Program-made: the position numbers and the translations under genes
Notes under the pieces: generated by a model
Databases searched by the model: none
What the model was told of the DNA's origin: nothing
Seen by the model: the letters and a program-made list of their open reading frames with translations, nothing else
Shown here: positions 9,602-64,000 of the stretch, in pieces
How the letters are laid out: every line of letters begins with the position of its first letter
How positions within the stretch are numbered: the stretch's first letter is position 1
NCBI GenBank assembly: GCA_002245135.1
Contig: NGBS01001172.1
Span: 100,632 to 164,631 of the forward strand
Source: Proteromonas lacertae
Lineage: Eukaryota; Sar; Bigyra; Opalinata; Proteromonadidae
Direction: 5' to 3'
DNA: 64,000 nucleotides

Positions 9602-12600
9602 ATGGCTCATTTATTCCAAAAGACGCTTTGGTTGGAAAGACCATGGGTTACATTGAAGTATGGTGGAACAAGTGTTGCTACTCTCAAGAGCTGGAGTGGA
9701 ATTTGTAATCATGTTAGAGATTTGTTAAGTACAAATCGTATATGGCTAACAGTTTCTGCAATTAGCCAAGTATATCAATTGTATATAATAATTTTAGGTA
9801 ACAAATCACTTGGAACAAGCAATTAAAGAAAGTCTAAATAATAAAACAGAAGAGATTAATTTATCATCATATAATTGGATAGTAGATAGACACAATCAAC
9901 TGATTAGTGGTATATTTATTCCAAATAATTGTGTTAGAAGCAAATCTTGATACTGACAGTCCAGGTGTTCAAAACTGTTTTAAATTCTTAAAAGAATTGA
10001 AGAGACTACTAGAAGGTGTATATTTAACCAACGAAATCTCTCCAAAGTTACGAGCAAAGATATTATCAATTGGAGAACTTTGTAGTTCAAATTTAGGCAA
10101 AGAAATACTTCATAAAACACTTAAGGAAGATGTATTATGGACAGATTCAAGGAAATTACTAATTAGTAAAACAAACAATAGTCAAACCAACACAATAGAT
10201 GCTGATAGTTATTTAGAAGCAGATATTGAACCAAAATGTAAAAGTGAATATATTGAGAATAATATTGTGGAAAATAATAGTATAGTAATAAGTCAAGTAT
10301 AAATTATATAATATATATTATTACATAGGGTTTTATCTGTAGTAATGCCAATGGTGAAACGTGTTTACTTGGAAGAGGAGGTAGTGATACATCTGCTAGT
10401 CTTTACAGTGTATTAATTAACGCCTGTAGATGTGAAATATGGACTGACGTTCATGGAATGTTCTCCAGTGATCCAAAGATAGTTACAGATGCATTATTAA
10501 TCAAAGAAATATCTTATAGACAAGCACAAGAGCTAGCTACATTAGGTGCAAAAGTATTACATCCACGTTGTATTGGTCCAGTTTATATGTATAATATTCC
10601 CTTAGAAATAAGAAATACGTTTGATCCAAATACTGATAATAAAACAGTGATTTCTAATTTTGATAATAGTAATAATAAAAGTAAAATTATCGGTGTAGTA
10701 AGTAGGAAGAAATGTATTATCATTAATATATTAAGTAAATTCGTGGACCATAGTACACCTGGTTATTTAAAAGGTGTATTTAGTACAGTTCATAGTTTTG
10801 GTATTTCTGTTGATTTGGTTGCTACTTCTACATTCTCAGTAACTATTGTTATTGAACATATCCCTGGTGGTGGTGTTGATGGTATGATATTTAAAAGAAT
10901 GTTACCATTGTTGGAGAATCATGGACAAGTTAGTTATATTTATCCAGTTTCCATTGTTTCAATAGTTGGATATAAATTGAGATCTTGTTTGCCAAGGATA
11001 GGAAAAGCATTAAATGTATAATATATATATATATATAATATAATATAATAATGAAATAGATATTTCAATCTTATAATATTCACTTATTAACTGAGTCATC
11101 TGAAGATTTGAATTTTTCATTTGTAGTTGAAGAAAGTATTTGTGATCAATTAGTTCAATTATTACACAAACAATTCTTTCCAACGGATACTGCTACAAGT
11201 TCAGATAAAACATTTGGCTTGTCTTGGTCAAAACTCCACAATATAGGAAGTATATAAAAATATATAATATATTATTATTTATTTATTTTATTTTATAGAA
11301 GAAACTGATTTTTCACCTTTACCATCTCCAACTCCTACTATCTCTAATAATCTCTCTATTTGTTCAACACCTCGTTCACCTGATTTTATAGACAGTGAAT
11401 CAGAAACTCCACGTCCAAATGCATCTGATTGGAATAATACTCAGAATAATAACAGATATAAGTCAGAATGGTGGTGTGATGGTGATATGAGAGATACTAT
11501 ATTAGAGATTGGTAAAGATAAATTACCACATTATATATATAATTTACCTGTTATTGAGAGTGAAGTATCTTATTTAAAGTCTTCTTTAGTGAATGTGGAT
11601 GAGATTTATTATTCAGTTAAAGCAAATTCACATCCAAGGATTATTAAACTATTAGATAAATTGGTATATATATATATATATATATATATATAATGATTAT
11701 TATTTATATATTTAATAGAATGTTCATTTTCAATGTAATACATACGAACAAGTTCAATATCTTTTATCATTATTACCACATTCAAAGATTCTATTTACTC
11801 CATTCATGAATCCTATAGAAAATATCAAAAATGTACTTCTTTTAAATAAGAATGTTGAAATAGCTATTGATTCAATAGATACACTATTAGAAGTACAAAA
11901 ACTACAAGAAGAGAATAAAGATAATGAGAAATTGAATAATTTATCATTCGCTATAAGAATCAATTGTATTGATGATCCAATATATGCTGGTGTTCCATTA
12001 TCCAAAATAAATGAATTATTTGAATTAATAGAAAAGATGAATATCACAATAATCGGTTTACATACGCATATACCAAGTAAATTATATAACAATGATACTT
12101 ATTCTAATATAAGCAAAATATTTATAGATATAATCAAATCTCATAAAGATAATATGAAATTAAAATGGGTAAGTTTAGGTGGTGGTTTATCAGTATATAC
12201 TGGTTGGGATTCATCGAAAAGATCTTCAATTTTAGATATTCAAAGAATAGAAATGGCTGTTACACTATTCAAATCACAATTAATAAGTTATTTTCCAAAA
12301 TGTCAAATTAGAATTGAACCTGGAAAATATATTGTAGCAAAAAGTGGAATTTTTATTTCTTCTGTTGTTTCTATTCAACAGAGAGGTCAGAAGAGATATA
12401 TTGCATTGAATACAGGTATTAATAACTTTGTCAATACAATGTACTTAAATGAATACCATACAGCTCACAATTTAACAAAATGGAGTTCATCTTCGATTGA
12501 AAGTAGTGAATCGAATGATAATACGAAGTTTCAAGTGTATCAAGTGATTGGTAATAATGAGGATAATCAAATATTGGCTAGTGATAGACTATTCCCAATG

Positions 12601-12732
12601 GATACTTCTGTGAATGATATAATCATAATGGAGCATAGTGGAGCGTATTGTAGCGTGTTTAAATCAAGATACTGTATGAGTACAGCTTCAGATGAAATAT
12701 GTTTGAATGATTATGGTGAAATTCTTAGTTAA
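9602..12732 (+). CDS. lysAC: bifunctional aspartate kinase / diaminopimelate decarboxylase
   Basis: Seven exons with introns of about 28, 28, 32, 44, 49 and 53 nt form one reading frame of about 965 aa. The N-terminal half is an aspartate kinase: LKYGGTSVATL is the nucleotide motif and GRGGSDTSASLY the active-site loop. ACT-like regulatory segments follow (VSRKKCIIINILS and IFQSYNIHLLTES). A Ser/Pro-rich linker then leads to a fold-III decarboxylase, with the PLP lysine in YYSVKANSHP, a glycine loop SLGGGLSVYTG, IEPGKYIVAKSG, and the C-terminal EHSGAYCSVF. Together these would catalyse the first and last steps of the diaminopimelate route to lysine. The same fusion order is known in Xanthomonadales-type LysAC, so bacterial acquisition is plausible, but the gene is fully intron-adapted. 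The usual CESGD-type decarboxylase motif is not apparent. Confidence 0.9.
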
Positions 12733-55058: not shown

Positions 55059-57105
55059 TTAGTTTAATAAATTACCAATAAATCTATTCCATTCTAAAAG
55101 ACTATCTGCATTATTGAATAAAATCTCTCGATTTGATAACATTTTCTTCTTTTCTTCTTTGTAATATGTCTCATTGTTTATCAGTTTCATTGCGATTTCT
55201 ATATATTCTTTTTCATTCTTAGCTATTCTATTATTTATATAAATAACAAATTATTATACAATTCTTCCATATCGATTATCTTATAAAATGAACCACCTAA
55301 TCTACCTCGAATATCTTCTCCATAGTTTGTTACATATAATACACCAGCATTTATACTATCTATCGCTGTTTGACTTCCATCATATGGGAATGTATGTAAC
55401 ATCAAATCACTTAATGTCATTAAACCTAAAAATCGATTTCTTCCTTCTACTCTATTAATAAAGTGCATTTTTGTACTTTTAAAAATATTTTTCATATCTT
55501 CTTGAAAATATACATTTTCTACATCACTTTCTGGATTCAAGAATAAAAGTGATATTCTATTAGATAGTTTTGTGATTTGTTTTAATGTTTCTATAAATAT
55601 TGGAGAGTATTTGGTTATATCTTGATATATTCCCAATACAAATTCATCTTCATTTATGTCATACTCTTTTCTGTTTGTTTCTATATACTTATACTTTTCT
55701 TGATAATGAATTAAACCACGAAATAGAATTGGCTGTTCTGTGTAATGATATAATAGCTTTTCATGATTTTCAATTATATCACTACTTATGTAATAATCGA
55801 TATTATCACATCCACTTGTTATTGGATTTATTAAATGCATTATCTATTTAAAAAAATTATCAATTATGCTATACTTGATAATAAGCACTTCGACCCATTG
55901 ATAATAAATAACTTCCAATGGAATTATAAATGTCAGAAAATATTAATATATCTAATTCACATCTTGATAATATCTTCACACATTCATTAAATTCAATTGG
56001 CATTTTATACAATCTAAGAAATATAAACAACATAATTATATAATATACCCTTTCAAATATCTAAATATTGGATCATTTAATACATAATCCATTACAAACA
56101 AATAAATATCATAATCAAGTGAAAGTGATCGAATTAAAGATCGGATGTATTGAGCATGAACATGACCTGGATGGTAAAAACTAATAATAAATCCAATTCT
56201 ACTTCTAGTTCTATCTGGTGTATGTGGAAAACCTATTTGAGAAATATGAATAAGATAAAAATACGTTTTAAAGATGGATCAAGAAATGGTGAAACGAATG
56301 TATCAATCTTTAAATACTTCTTTAAAACATCATTTACATTCTTTACATATGGTAATGCAGGGTAATATTTATAGTTATAATAAAACAATGGATTTGATTC
56401 CATTAAAACTGAATAGTTTCTATTTATAAACATGTTTATTTTATACTTAGCAAATTTATGTTCATTCTTTAAATAAACTGCATTTCTTTGAATTCTATTG
56501 AAAGTCTCATCATATAATGCTTTGTTATATGTTAAACGAGGAATGTATAACAACGCACGAATTGTATATAAGTCATTATTCTTACATTTTTTCAAAATAA
56601 ATGAGTAAGATAAAACAGCATATTCATGACAACCATTATTCTCACAAAACCTAATATTGTTTATATAATATAGTGAAAACATAAATATATTTATATATAC
56701 ATTCCTTCTTCAAAAACAAGATCACACATCTCTTTAAGAGATTTATCATCAAAGTCATTGTATTTTTCTAGATACTTTTCTAATACTTCCTGTTTTGCTT
56801 TTATATTTTTTCCAAGAGTTTTTATTATTTGTATTATCAGTTTTACAGATATATTACATCTGTTTAAATACTTTTTGTATAAATCTAAAATGAAATCATT
56901 ATTGCTATCCTAAATTTTGAATAATAAAGTATATATACTTTTATATGCTCTTTAACTACTCGTATCAAAGCAACATCATTACAAACTAGACTATCTGGCT
57001 TTCTTTTTAAAAATTCTGATGTTCCAACTATTTTAATGTCAAATATGTTTATATACAATGAATTAATATTATATATAGTATTAATGTAATGTATAAAAAC
57101 TTCAT
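55059..57105 (-). CDS. GT41 (OGT/SPINDLY-like) glycosyltransferase with putative signal peptide
   Basis: About eight exons give roughly 590 aa. The C-terminal catalytic half has FVLGIYQDITKYSPIF, RISLLFLNPES, FLGLMTLSDLMLHTFPYDG, then QTAIDSINAGVLYVTNYGED and LIAKNEKEYIEIAMKL. These are the conserved blocks of O-GlcNAc transferase-like GT41 enzymes, including the sugar-nucleotide site. A 20-nt intron near 55,240 is needed to restore the last block and is the shortest I accept. The N-terminal half is helical and may contain degenerate TPR repeats. The first exon encodes a hydrophobic MKFLYITLILYIILIHFG, joined through a 29-nt intron. If real, this would send the enzyme to the secretory pathway, unlike cytosolic OGT. 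The start overlaps the divergent gene at 57089. Confidence 0.72.
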
Positions 57106-58087
57106 TAATGAAAAAAAAGCAAATAAAAAATTAGAAAGGCTTGATTTGTCAAGCTATGAAACGGATTTATATTTTCATTTTCATATTTTTATGAGTTCTG
57201 CAATATCGGTGATACTATCAATAGTTAATAATATTAAAAAGTACAGAGCTAGATCATTTTGTCAGTTTTTTTATATTTTTCTAATGTTTGTATAAATTTT
57301 AGGAATTATATCAAGATTTCATCACTCATTTTGCTTTTTCTATACATTGAGTTGAAAAGTGATATAATATACCGTTATTTGACTGATTATTCTAGGTTGA
57401 AATTGGAATATATATTGATTATGTGTTTAGACATTATTGCAACACTCATGATATTATTATTTTCACCGTTTGATCCTATTGTATTTGTTATCTCGTATTT
57501 TTCTTTTCTATGTGTAATAGGATAGCTATGGCGCTTATTGAAATAATTCCATCAGCAGCTGCATCAGCAAACAGTTATGAGATTGAAGAAATAGAAAAAA
57601 TAGTAGATTTATATTGTAAAAGTAATGCAACTATTACACCAGAAGTATATATATATATATAAATATATAGTGTGAAGATTTCAATAGAATAATAGGCTGC
57701 AAAAATCCACTGAAAGAATATGATGATTATTTCAATGAAAAAAGGAATTATCATATTGTTACTTGTGCTATTTATTTTGTTTTGAAAATTTTCCTGCTTT
57801 TTGCATCTGTGGTAGCAACTGTTACATTGTTAAAAAGAGAAGATAAAGTAAAACATGAGTGGATTTATTACTCTAAATGTTTTTTGCCTATAAATAATAA
57901 ATCACTAAGAAGATTAAAGAAATTGGAATATATGGAAATAGTAGTTTATATTTTATTAAATATATGTTCCGTTATTCCAATTGTTGTTGGTAGTATATTA
58001 TTGAACAAAAGACAGAAAATTGAATATGATTTTATACCCCAGAAATATGTTGTATTTTTAGTAATATATTTTATTCCATATGTATGA
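57089..58087 (+). CDS. polytopic membrane protein, unknown function
   Basis: Four exons with introns of 38, 26 and 26 nt sum to 302 aa. At least five or six hydrophobic segments are seen, for example IFMSSAISVILSIVN, ISSLILLFLYIEL, ILIMCLDIIATLMILL, IFLLFASVVATVTLL and IVVYILLNICSVIPIVVGS. A cysteine-containing soluble loop (YCKSNATITPECEDFNRIIGC) may be lumenal and disulfide-bonded. The first codons overlap the first codons of the GT41 gene on the other strand by 17 bp; an internal ATG at 57192 would avoid this. I recognise no family. It converges on the giant receptor gene. Confidence 0.55.
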
Positions 58088-58281: not shown

Positions 58282-61200
58282 TTAAGAAGATGATGAAGTA
58301 ACATCATTTTCTTCATTTTTTGATATTATAGAGATTTGGCTCATTTTTAAACTTTGAATTGATTTATTCTGAATAGTTGACATTAATGAAGTAGATCCTG
58401 CCAATTTAGTCTTTCGATTATTTTCATCAACTAAATCATCATGTTTAGAAAAGTAATAACGAAGTAATGTATTGACAAATATATAAACAAACAAAAACAC
58501 TGGTTCATCAACTGCTAGTATTTGATTTATCACTTCAAACTGTTCTTTATACAAATACATCACAATAAATCCATTGAATATCAGATATATCAGTAATGTC
58601 AAACAATTGATCAAATGTAAATATATCAGACTTTTATTTGGTAATACATAATATCTTGCTCTCCAAAATATTAGTAAAGAGAATAACAATATTGAAAGTA
58701 ATATCACCAATCTTAATACATAAAACACATCACCACCATCGCAATGTATTTGAACAGTAATAAATCGTAAATCATCTGACCATTTCTCTGATACTTGCAT
58801 ATGAATAGAATCAATACTTGATGAATCAAAACCCCAAAGTATTATTTCAGCTAATGGAAATACTAATATTAATGGAACAATGATTTTGGTTGGAATACTT
58901 GTAGTTAATATTGTACAATTTCGATATAAAAACAAATGGAGCAATTTTGCTATTTCAAAACTACAAAAGAACTCTAACATATAAATCCAATATATTTTCA
59001 CTCTATAGCAATCAGAATTATCTTCTAAATCATGATAAGGACGAGTAAAGAAGCTGAAACAGTTTAATGTGATTATAATATACAATAAAACTACATACAC
59101 TTTACCTTCTTTCGATAATCTTTCGAAGATTGGGATGTAATATATTGACAATAAAGACAAAACAGAAATAAATGTTTCAAAAAACAATAGAATTGGATTA
59201 ATAATTTCGATTGAATTATTTGATTTATTCATTACTCTTGTTGGACCAACATAACAATCTAATTTCTTTTCATTTGGAAAACCATAATATGGAACTGGGG
59301 GTGTTTTGAATATTGAGTTATAATATAATTTTAAACCATAATTAATAGTATCTGTAGATAATTGTAACACCTGTAATTCTCTAGTAAAATAATTAATTCC
59401 GTAAGGAGAAGTTAATGTTGATGATAATGTAGTAATGTTAAATTCATTATATAATAATCGATACAATTCTGGTTCAATATCATCCCAACAATTAAATGAT
59501 CTTTTACTATTGAACACTGTTTGTAAAAGTGTTAGAATTGAATAACTATATTCCATACTTTCAGTTATAACTTCATTGTTACTACTTACATACAATAAGT
59601 AATTTTGAAATATTACAGATGTTTTTGAATAGATTGAATGATAATAAGATTTGATTATAAAATGATTTGTAAAGATTGTATTAAATTCTGGTGGTGTATC
59701 ATACTCAAAATAACTAATGAATATATATCTATATTTTTCATTTTCATCTGATGATAACTTAGAATATTCTACTGTCAATTCATTCATTGCATAATTACCA
59801 CCTAATACTGATACAACGTATGAAAAGTTATTATGTGAATATCTTTTATACATATCAGCAAAACTGAAATTTTCATCATAATATTCTACATATGTATTAA
59901 TAGTTTCTATATCTTTAAACTGTTTATCAAATGCATATTTCATTACAGTATCATTTCTATATATTAATAATATCACATGATGTTCATTTGTTTTAGTTAT
60001 TAAATACTCTACAGTATTCATCAATTGATTTGGTGTTGGAGCTATAGAGATATAATACTTATCACATTGATCACATCTTGTTTGAAATATTGGGAAATAA
60101 TAAGTATCATAATTCTTTATTATTGCACTTAAACTATTAACTTCAAAGAAAGGACTTCCACCTAAAACACCTACACAATTTGGTTGACTAATTACTCTCT
60201 CAAATTCTTTAACACCAATATTACGATTTTTATCTATTATTGAAATATAAAACACCCATCGATAATTTGTTATTGAACCAAATATACTTCTGAAATAATC
60301 ACAAGCAGCAAATAAAGTCATATACATATTGCTACTATATGTCTCAATTTCATAATATGGAATAATTGGATATACCAATATGAATAACTTTTCAGGTGGT
60401 ATTGGAACTATTGGATTTGAAACAGAACAATCACACGAATTTGTTGGAATTGACATTGAAAATGGTGAATATTGAGGATCTATAGAATACTCAACTCCCT
60501 GTTTTATTACTGTTCCATTAGCAAAGAAATGAGCAATATAAATTGGACGACTAAAATATCCATCGGCTGATAATGTATAACCATTTAATGTTCCTTCAAG
60601 AAATTGTTCATTTGGGAAGAAATTCTCATTCAGATAACTATCATAATTGAATCGATGTTTTCGCGCAACTGTTGATCTCCAAAATGTTAAAGCGTTCAAC
60701 GTATTTTCCAATAATGGTGGAACATTATAATACTTTAAAACAGGTTCATATATTACATTATGTAATTGCTCATATAAAACACTATTAATAGAAAATTCTT
60801 GATCTGATGAAGAGACTATAAAAGTATCATCAAAAAAAGATGGGCTAAACTCTTCTATCATTGTTTCAGTTACAAAAAATGAATATAATTTAGATTGTGA
60901 AGGAATATATTGTTTCACATTATTGTAATATGCAATACTTAAGAATAATTCTGTTGGAATATCCAATAAATTTAATATAAACGCAGGCAGTTTAGATTGA
61001 AGAATAACATTGGCATAAACATTATAAATACCACCAAGTTTTGTATCATATAAAGTAATTGAATGATTTGTTTCAGTTATAAACTTTGAAATCAATGGAA
61101 CAATTGAAGAAACAACTCTATCTGAATTATACAATATAACTGTATGATATAATCTCATTCCCCAATGAGTAAATATTATATTAACAAACTGTTCAGGTAA

Positions 61201-64000
61201 TGGATTAAATGATATTGTATTACATATACAATCCAATCTAGAACTCCAACCAGTATAAAATAAAACAGCATTCTTATCATATTCAAATAACAGATCAGAT
61301 ATTCGTTGCTTTTCTTCTGGAAATGTTCCACCGAAGAATACTTCAATTCTTGTACTTTTTAGTTCATTTTTCAAAGCTACATCATCTTGAGCTAAATCAA
61401 AATAATGAACATTTATATAATAATTATCAATATTATCATATTCATTGAAATATTCAACAGCAGTATAAAATGCTATTAAATAGGTGTTATAAAATATGGA
61501 GGATGAATAAAACAATGAATAGAAATAACCTATATCAACTATATTATTCTTATCAACAATTTCAGAAACACTATCACTAGATGCAGACATATGACACTTG
61601 TATAATTCATCATACATATAAAAATGAGAATAATAATCTATTACTTTCAATATGACTGAATATGCTGTTGAATTAATCGCATATATATAAGATGTATAAG
61701 AAAGTGTATGAATTGGTGTAATTATTCTGTTCTGATAAAAATAATCCAATAATAATGATGAATCCTTATACTGATTAGTAAAAATAGAAGCATTTAGCCA
61801 AACATTTGTCATATAAAACAATTCTAATGTTGAATCATACACAAGATTATCTTCACAATTGGTTGTCGACACATACATTTCTGATTGTAATGCACAAGAT
61901 TCTTCATCTGTTCTAGAACGGACCGAGTAAAGAACAACATCACTTGGTAATGTATAATATGATGTTAAATCTTTCAATAGTTTATATTCAATCATTGGAC
62001 AGAATATTTCATATTTTGTTCCTTCTTTTTTGTTTGCTCCAAATGAAAAAGTACTATTCAGATGTTCATGTGATGTATTAGTTGATATTGCATTAATAAA
62101 TACTGTTAATTCAGTAAATGGTAATACATATAATACTTTACAATATAAATACTTACTGCAATCTTTAGAAATAATCTCAATTACGTTTGATAATGTATGA
62201 TTCTCATCTATTCTATTAATACTGTACTTGAAATGAAATTCATCAAATGTATTTATGTAATATGTATTGATTCAGAATCTAAATCATTATTATATACTAT
62301 TGTAAAAAACATATCTAATGCATCTTCTTGAAATAAATACCATATAAAGTACTTTGAAGCAATTCTTATATTTTGTGATGTAAATATCAAATGTTTATTA
62401 CATAGAATATTATAATAAACATATGATGTAATCATAATTTTATCTGCTTTTTCTAAATATGGAATATAATCGATAGAACAATAAGGTTTTATGTGAGATA
62501 TTATAAACAATATATCATCGTTTAAAATAATATTCATATCTGGCAATAGACAACCATCTATTGTTTTTACCATTACATCAATTGTATCAAATATTTTATA
62601 ATAAGAATCATATCTAGTTTCAAATAAACCACGAATTGTATTTACTAATTGTATTTCAGATGGAGCTGTATCTAATGAAGGATCAATTATTGCTAACACA
62701 TATTGTCTTTTTCTATAACAATTTTCTCACCTAAATGATGTTGATGATCACATTGATACTCTATTCCACTTATTATCATCAAACAAATACCATGGTTTTG
62801 GTTCATTGGGAATTGGATCATCCAATATTGTTCTTAATGAACCATCTTCATATTGGTATATTCTGAAGAATCTAGTACCATAATTATTCTTTCGAATTGT
62901 TAATATTCCATCTGGTGCATGTATTACTATTGAATAGATTTTCTTATTAATTTCATTCACATCAACACTATCAGCTAATTTATTGCTCTATCCATAAAGT
63001 TCATACAATTATAACCTGAAGGGTATTCAGTAAATAGAATCCAGTGATAATCCAAAATACTTATCTAATCCATTAACATTCGATTCGTTTCTTCTGATCC
63101 TTGCCTATACAAAGTGCCAATAAAATATATCTTTTCCCACAAATTTGTTAGACTTGGTACATTTGGATTGTAATTATAGACTATTAATGTAAAACTATCA
63201 TATAAATCAAGTTTGTGTAAATAATTAATTGTGCTTAATAAAGTTGGTCCACTTATAATCAAATGAAACACTGTTCCATAAACATAATTACTTGTATGAG
63301 GTAATAAAAATGGTTCACATTCTCTATCTAATGGTATTGTTATTATCATGTAATCTACTTGATCTAAACCAGTTGTTCTTATCAAAGTATTCAAATTATT
63401 ACCATCCATTTGAGATATAAATATATGTTTTTCATTTAATTTTGAATTTGTTATAGCTTGGATTGATTTATACAAACTAAAATCACCACCTGTATAATAG
63501 AAATTTTCTTTACATTCCCACCGATTATTACATGACTATGCCATATTCTTTTACTCAAATACTTTTCTTTACTTAAATACTGACGAACATTTAATCTTTC
63601 ACATCCAACAATATGTGTTATATTATATCTTTCTATAACCTCATCAAAATAATCCATATTGCTATTTGTATCAACTACAATTGGTATAACTCTATACTTC
63701 TTGCCTAGAATATAATGAACTTCTCTTAAATAATTCAACTCACCAATTAGTAGTTTTATTCCTACATTTGCATATTCACCTGATAATGTATGAAAGAATG
63801 CAACATGAAAATTCAAATCACCTATTACATTCCATTCTCATCGTATGTACAGACCGAATGAGAATATACACCAAATGGATTTCTTAATGGATTGAATAAA
63901 AATGTATTATAAATTTGTATTTCTTTTGCTTCTGAATCATATTTATACATCATTGTTTTGTATAACATATAATGGTTATTTTGTAATGTCATTGCATCAT
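58282..64000 (-). CDS. giant receptor: tandem bacterial-type solute-binding domains plus class-C-like 7TM, 5' end outside window
   Basis: The 3' exon (58282-61995) alone codes 1,237 aa. A seven-helix domain (about 58,430-59,205) begins ILLFFETFISVLSLLS and ends NTLLRYYFSKHDD; a 50-residue cytoplasmic tail follows. Upstream lie repeated type-I periplasmic-binding domains of the amide/urea/branched-chain amino acid kind: about 59,270-60,400 (APTPNQLMNTVEYL), 60,420-61,550 (NAVLFYTGWSSRLD), 61,560-62,720 (NKHLIFTSQNIRIAS) and 62,750-63,830 (WECKENFYYTGGDFS). The end of another is cut by the window. Linkers share a D/N-P...P-F pattern (IDPQYSPF, FNPLRNPF). Frame changes near 62,250, 63,000 and 63,500 need short introns or are breaks. 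Class C GPCRs usually have one such domain. Confidence 0.75.

What the first reader, a model, noticed from the sequence alone, without database searches (positions are those of the whole stretch)
58282..64000. Receptor with four or more tandem bacterial-type solute-binding domains fused to a class-C-like 7TM domain
The sequence shows a C-terminal seven-helix region preceded by at least four segments carrying the same landmarks: a YTG-like or equivalent beta-strand, a PNQ/PEQ-like helix start, and a conserved D/N-P...P-F linker. A further domain end is visible at the window edge. Known class C GPCRs carry one Venus-flytrap domain per chain. A tandem array in one chain could sense several small ligands or act as a stalk. 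The tandem layout is the part I consider possibly undescribed.
Basis: partly seen in the sequence, partly recalled or inferred. Interest (0 to 1): 0.78.

Follow-up and report, generated by a model that had tools for sequence, protein, structure and literature searches.

The report
Receptor with stacked nutrient-binding domains
An unidentified eukaryote carries a large family of cell-surface receptors that string six or more bacterial-style nutrient-binding domains in a row in front of one seven-helix signalling domain, where the receptors I found described carry one.

Summary
In the window, four periplasmic-binding-protein (PBP) domains, the end of a fifth and a seven-helix domain lie on the minus strand. 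The window's frame breaks (about 62263-63829) look like assembly indels at a contig end: contig C394 carries the same gene in one open frame of 2613 codons, with six PBP domains and then the helices. The window copy is divergent: Pfam finds nothing in it, and its helices are placed mainly by alignment to relatives. Those relatives settle the type. The same genome has 116 loci with 7tm_3 matches (redundant contigs included). In 18 of 20 regions picked for strong or long matches, the main frame holds 6-8 Peripla_BP_5-type repeats of about 388 residues. An SRA-derived protein of 3886 aa has nine repeats plus 7tm_3. The repeats resemble UrtA/AmiC, the helices GABA-B receptors. Repeats keep their register: 123 of 130 match best at the same position in another chain. 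Distal repeats usually diverge fastest. I read this as a class C GPCR with a tandem Venus-flytrap ectodomain; my literature searches found no description of one. Ligands, dimerisation and signalling are inferred, not shown.

The parts
58282..62271 (-). Intact 3' open frame of the receptor gene (1329 aa), 100% identical (as rounded) over residues 3-1328 to contig C394, where the frame has 2613 codons
58477..59205 (-). Seven-helix domain, class C-like, divergent
   Evidence: Span of the six hydropathy segments, residues 1023-1265 of the window frame; alignment with 17 relatives that match 7tm_3, TM3/ECL2 cysteines kept; weak profile match E 4.6e-4, no Pfam match
59278..60336 (-). PBP domain D, next to the membrane
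   Evidence: profile E 6e-19; 8e-22 in the joined protein
60445..61479 (-). PBP domain C
   Evidence: profile E 4e-26; 2e-29 in the joined protein
61530..62700 (-). PBP domain B, approximate limits, split over two frames in the window
   Evidence: weak in the window (E 0.01); 4e-9 in the joined protein
62770..63830 (-). PBP domain A, approximate limits, split over three frames in the window
   Evidence: E 7e-8 and 0.01 for its pieces; 5e-28 in the joined protein
63840..64000 (-). C-terminal end of a fifth PBP domain, cut by the contig end; the domain lies in C394 (2e-11), with a sixth before it (3e-7)
62263..63829 (-). Stretch with eight small deletions against C394, read as assembly errors at the contig end
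   Evidence: similar noise in the same gene near the end of contig C1174

Best explanation
The window holds the 3' part of an intact gene for a class C (GABA-B-like) G-protein-coupled receptor whose ectodomain is a row of Venus-flytrap (type I PBP) domains of the UrtA/AmiC kind: at least six in this gene, six to nine in most relatives examined. Shown by sequence: domain types in relatives, one open frame, conserved register of the repeats, paralogue pairs with dN/dS below 1, distal repeats usually diverging fastest, G-alpha genes in the genome. Inferred: the membrane-next domain couples straight to the helices without a cysteine-rich domain, as in GABA-B receptors; the receptor dimerises through its proximal domains; closure of one or more flytraps on small ligands (nutrient- or prey-derived amino acids, amides or urea-like compounds) is passed down the row to the seven helices and a G protein. 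Distal domains would tune what is sensed and hold the sensor away from the membrane; proximal domains and helices would be the common output.
For: Six PBP domains then helices in one frame of the window gene. 18 of 20 fetched regions with 6-8 repeats in the main frame, 17 of 20 with the helices in that same frame. Pfam: Peripla_BP_5 and 7tm_3 in 17 of 17 aligned relatives. Five of eight SRA-derived homologues have repeats and helices in one frame, P0002 with nine repeats and a hydrophobic start. Repeat nearest to UrtA 7s6e (E 5e-18) and AmiC; helices nearest to GABA-B2 (E 2e-15). Register 123 of 130, shuffles 21.2 on average and at most 41. dN/dS 0.37-0.63 in 10 of 12 pairs. G-alpha present.
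Against: The window copy itself matches no Pfam family, and its helices are weak by profile. One of the two window repeats scored misses the register test. No transcript, expression, ligand or signalling data. In 3 of 20 regions the helices lie on the next frame. Two of 12 paralogue pairs have dN/dS 0.86 and 0.91. Pocket columns are better kept than chance at only one of seven positions (0.019, uncorrected for seven tests). The single-sequence structure prediction was useless (pLDDT 37). The fetched regions were picked for strong or long matches.
Confidence: 0.8

Rival explanations
1. Stalk: only one or two repeats bind ligand; the others are spacers that lift the sensor above the cell coat or present a variable surface. 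Signalling works as in an ordinary one-flytrap class C receptor.
For: Pocket columns are better kept than chance at one of seven positions only, and at position -3 they are more variable than average. Distal repeats usually diverge fastest.
Against: The register is conserved (123 of 130), which a plain spacer would not need; repeats keep domain cysteines and PBP length at most positions; some UrtA loop residues are kept at -4 and -5.
Confidence: 0.35
2. The window copy is a decayed pseudogene of such a receptor.
For: Frame breaks at about 62263-63829; divergent sequence without Pfam matches.
Against: C394 carries the same sequence in one frame of 2613 codons; the differences are eight small deletions confined to the last 1.75 kb of the contig, and the next 4 kb are identical as rounded; another contig end shows similar noise in the same gene.
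Confidence: 0.1
3. Separate neighbouring genes read as one: secreted PBP repeats next to a short seven-helix gene.
For: In 3 of 20 regions the helices lie on the next open frame; candidate introns there were not resolved.
Against: In the other 17 of 20 repeats and helices share one frame, as they do in five of eight SRA-derived proteins.
Confidence: 0.03

Closest known systems
GABA-B receptors (class C GPCR, 7tm_3)
   Same: Helices: best solved match GABA-B2, E 2e-15, then GABA-B1 and mGluR; no cysteine-rich domain reported by Pfam between flytrap and helices; conserved TM3/ECL2 cysteines
   Different: Six to nine flytraps per chain instead of one; at the cut-off used, the one repeat searched matches UrtA/AmiC and no class C ectodomain in the PDB
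UrtA urea-binding proteins and AmiC (Peripla_BP_5, type I PBP)
   Same: Full-length similarity of a repeat, E 5e-18 to 7s6e, including the YxG..PNQ stretch, the cysteine at UrtA 119 and the C-terminal CDW tail
   Different: Eukaryotic, in tandem and fused to a seven-helix domain; the recalled AmiC/UrtA pocket residues are kept partly, best at position -5
Class C receptors of fungi, gut fungi and dictyostelids (PMC3251606, PMC5168858, PMC10445921; passages read, section 10 of the last)
   Same: Class C helices behind binding-protein-type ectodomains; lineage expansions (78 in A. macrogynus; 51, 24 and 32 in three gut fungi)
   Different: [quoted passage not shown] N-termini up to about 1667 residues; the word 'tandem' does not occur in the three texts. 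Figures were not seen.
Bacterial sensors EvgS and CdgH (PMC5573083, PMC8174306, PMC5431781; search listing and abstract start only); BvgS recalled
   Same: Two binding-protein domains in a row ahead of a signalling module
   Different: Bacterial kinases or cyclases, two domains, no seven-helix domain

Membership tests
Class C GPCR (relatives in the same genome) | 7tm_3 domain over the Pfam cut-off | tested here: met
   17 of 17 aligned relatives match PF00003; L018, L019, L022 at 102-132 bits against a cut-off of 33.5
Class C GPCR (the window copy) | 7tm_3 domain | tested here: inconclusive
   No Pfam match; family 7TM model E 4.6e-4 on the joined protein but no hit in the six-frame scan; aligned with relatives, both cysteines kept
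Class C GPCR | Large N-terminal Venus-flytrap (type I PBP) domain | tested here: met
   Peripla_BP_5 in 17 of 17 relatives; family profile E 4e-26 and 6e-19 in the window
   Six in the window gene, 6-8 in 18 of 20 regions, nine in P0002
mGluR/CaSR branch | Cysteine-rich domain (NCD3G) between flytrap and helices | tested here: not met
   Not listed for L018, L019, L022 at E<=0.01 nor for 18 aligned members at E<=0.001
Class C GPCR | Couples to heterotrimeric G protein; works as a dimer | not testable with these tools
   G-alpha genes are present in the genome; coupling and dimerisation need experiments
UrtA/AmiC-type PBP | Full-length sequence similarity | tested here: met
   L019 repeat -4: 7s6e E 5e-18, 1qnl E 6e-11; Peripla_BP_5 matches
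UrtA/AmiC-type PBP | Small-molecule pocket residues (list recalled) | tested here: inconclusive
   Better kept than random columns only at -5 (0.019, seven positions tested), not at the other six

The most novel reading that the evidence does not exclude
A combinatorial chemoreceptor system: each receptor reads several ligands along a row of position-specific flytraps, and the repertoire diversifies by setting fast-changing distal arrays on shared, recombined proximal ends, a variable/constant design in a GPCR. One pair shows the pattern: L019 and L020 are 98-99% identical at third codon positions over repeats -2 and -1 and about 47-51% over the distal repeats; of the two other pairs profiled, L022/L035 shows no such jump and L019/L021 only a gradual rise.
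Probability: 0.3. Interest if true: 0.88.

Novelty: new variant of a known kind. Interest (0 to 1): 0.74.

Why it matters
It breaks the one-flytrap-per-chain layout of class C receptors and offers a natural family in which to ask how several binding domains in series drive one seven-helix switch. It adds UrtA/AmiC-type domains to the ectodomains named in the papers I saw, and the fixed register of the repeats suggests that each position has its own job. If the distal repeats bind, one polypeptide would integrate several nutrients or prey signals, a useful model for multi-input biosensors.

Tried and rejected
Pseudogene reading of the window: rejected after contig C394 showed an open frame. Contig C1174, first taken for an 81% paralogue, turned out to be the same gene with frame noise near a contig end; the dN/dS computed on it is meaningless and not used. 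Organism not identified: ribosomal protein L3 against PDB gave no clear affinity; the 18S was read but no reference set was on hand; Cochliopodium minus is alike in size and GC, but its longest scaffold is 649 kb and this genome has an 865 kb contig; Trichosphaerium (37.7% GC) does not fit; nothing in the passages of PMC11702301 fits. AlphaFold without alignment: pLDDT 37, discarded. Alignments A3 and A4 meant for folding were spoiled by repeat slippage and not folded. A GT-AG intron search in the three split members gave many candidates and no clear answer. One search was a wasted scan of 20 residues. The 116 loci drop nine matches under the cut-off and include redundant contigs: not a gene count.

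Literature: no tandem-flytrap GPCR in searches. Searches used Pfam names and returned nothing; the 25 of 45 papers listed were unrelated uses of ANF. Only open-licence PubMed Central papers are held; subscription papers and preprints were not searchable. Seen: passages of PMC5168858, PMC9198077, PMC11702301, PMC10521059 and PMC3251606; passages and section 10 of PMC10445921; listing and abstract start only for PMC5573083, PMC8174306, PMC5431781.

Full report
What is there. The window is the end of contig C1172 of an AT-rich eukaryotic assembly, 50.2 Mb in 1181 contigs. On the minus strand an open frame of 1329 codons runs from 62271 to 58282; Pfam finds nothing in it at E<=1. The genome has 132 matches to 7tm_3 (150 of 151 candidates scored). 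Of these, 123 are over the cut-off and fall into 116 loci, 81 of them without a stop inside the match; 32 of the 81 lie in frames of 2000 codons or more (redundant contigs included). It also has at least 112 matches to Peripla_BP_5; only 112 of 683 first-look candidates were scored.

The relatives. I fetched 20 regions, picked for strong matches or long frames, so they are not a random sample. The main frame holds 6-8 copies, partial ones included, of a repeat of about 388 residues in 18 of 20, and two copies in 2 of 20. In 17 of 20 the helices follow in the same frame; in 3 they lie on the next frame. Pfam independently gives 5, 8 and 8 Peripla_BP_5 stretches plus one 7tm_3 for L018, L019 and L022, and both families in 17 of 17 aligned relatives.

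The window gene. A profile built from 110 repeats of relatives, without window rows, hits the window frame at E 4e-26 and 6e-19 and its broken upstream part at E 7e-8, 0.01 and 0.01; 50 shuffled controls gave one hit, at E 3. I read the upstream breaks as assembly errors. Residues 3-1328 of the window frame are 100% identical, as rounded, to contig C394, where the frame is 2613 codons long. Over the contig end the two differ by 10 bases missing from the window, in eight places, and 2 mismatches in 1828 bp. A second contig end, C1174, shows similar noise in the same gene (1.8 kb read). Through C394 the gene has six PBP domains (E 3e-7, 2e-11, 5e-28, 4e-9, 2e-29, 8e-22, from the N-terminal side) and then the helices. 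Its start and any upstream exons were not examined. The helices of this copy are divergent: profile E 4.6e-4 on the joined protein, no hit in the six-frame scan, six hydrophobic segments over the threshold and a weaker one where TM3 aligns. They are placed mainly by the end-to-end alignment, in which the two cysteines that align at TM3 and ECL2 are invariant in 18 of 18 rows.

Independent support. Three searches of 5.8 billion proteins found eight homologues, all from SRA assemblies without names. Five of the eight carry repeats and helices in one frame; P0002, 3886 aa, begins with a hydrophobic, signal-like stretch and has nine repeats and 7tm_3. Against the 20 fetched frames and the window frame their best matches are 19% (P0004) to 83% (P0001) identical. 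P0005, searched against the whole genome, has its best match at 67-72%, so it is not from this genome. For P0001 and P0003 the same search did not complete and P0002 was too long, so how many species the eight represent is open. Separate assemblies with the same layout argue against an assembly chimaera.

What the parts are. One repeat (L019, fourth from the membrane) finds UrtA urea-binding proteins (7s6e, E 5e-18), 8tg1 and AmiC in the PDB, and no class C ectodomain at E<=0.001. The L019 helices find GABA-B2 first (E 2e-15), then GABA-B1 and mGluR. No cysteine-rich domain is reported. G-alpha genes are present.

How the array evolves. Repeats within one chain are about 15% identical, as are repeats at different positions of different chains. 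Yet 123 of 130 repeats have their best match in another chain at the same position counted from the membrane; shuffling positions within chains gives 21.2 on average and at most 41 in 200 trials. The seven misses are three repeats of L025, one of L028, one of the window and the two outermost of P0002, which have no counterpart in the set. The row is thus an old unit with distinct positions. Between paralogues the distal repeats are usually less alike (about 0.3-0.4 at -6 and -5) than the proximal one (0.5-0.7 at -1), though L032/L033 and L033/L030 are flat and L022/L035 is mixed. dN/dS is 0.37-0.63 in 10 of 12 pairs and 0.86 and 0.91 in the two least alike, with dS up to 0.9. L019 and L020 are 98-99% identical at third positions over repeats -2 and -1 and 47-51% over the distal repeats, a mosaic; of the two other pairs profiled, L022/L035 shows no such jump and L019/L021 rises gradually.

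Do the repeats bind? Pocket columns of AmiC/UrtA (list recalled) are better kept than random columns only at position -5 (W/Y, S/T, R, Y, T, Y; 0.019, not corrected for seven positions tested). At -4 the Y-P...G...C loop is kept, but the pocket set is not; at -3 the pocket columns are more variable than average. This fits one conserved site plus diversified sites, or one site plus spacers.

Mechanism. I judge a G-protein-coupled chemoreceptor with a serial flytrap ectodomain at 0.8, integration of several ligands at about even odds within that, and a stalk with few binding sites at 0.35. Signalling, dimerisation and ligands are inferred from the class, not shown.

Known or new. The papers seen in passages describe binding-protein ectodomains in fungal, gut-fungal and dictyostelid class C receptors and mention no tandem arrays (PMC3251606; PMC5168858; PMC10445921). 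Tandem flytraps turned up only for the bacterial sensors EvgS and CdgH (listing). My searches found no tandem-array GPCR. I rate it a new variant of a known kind.

Noticed in passing
62263-63829; also L042 (G000:C1174:1592-3391): Contig ends of this assembly carry small indels that break reading frames; some of the stop-containing 7tm_3 matches in the genome may be of this kind.
   Followed up: partly
10329-12732: Two neighbouring + strand frames that look by eye like an aspartate kinase and a diaminopimelate decarboxylase, perhaps a bifunctional lysine-pathway gene (not searched).
   Followed up: no
57253-58087: Hydrophobic + strand frames that converge on the receptor gene; no Pfam match at E<=1.
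   Followed up: no
55235-55843: Minus-strand frame with a sub-threshold match to Glyco_transf_41 (E 2e-4, 20 bits against a cut-off of 25).
   Followed up: no
G000:C1171:149811-150560 (+) and 153784-154533 (-): Two 7tm_3 matches of equal score and frame length on opposite strands 4 kb apart: an inverted duplication or an assembly hairpin.
   Followed up: no
L019, L020: Mosaic paralogues: near-identical silent sites over repeats -2 and -1, near-random over the distal repeats.
   Followed up: partly
L024, L026, L027, P0001, P0008: In all five the frame ends inside the last repeat on that frame; in the three loci the helices are on the next frame, perhaps a shared intron site.
   Followed up: partly
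L038 (G000:C357:300-2200): Tandem rDNA units of about 7.66 kb; the 18S read here looks divergent and would name the organism.
   Followed up: partly
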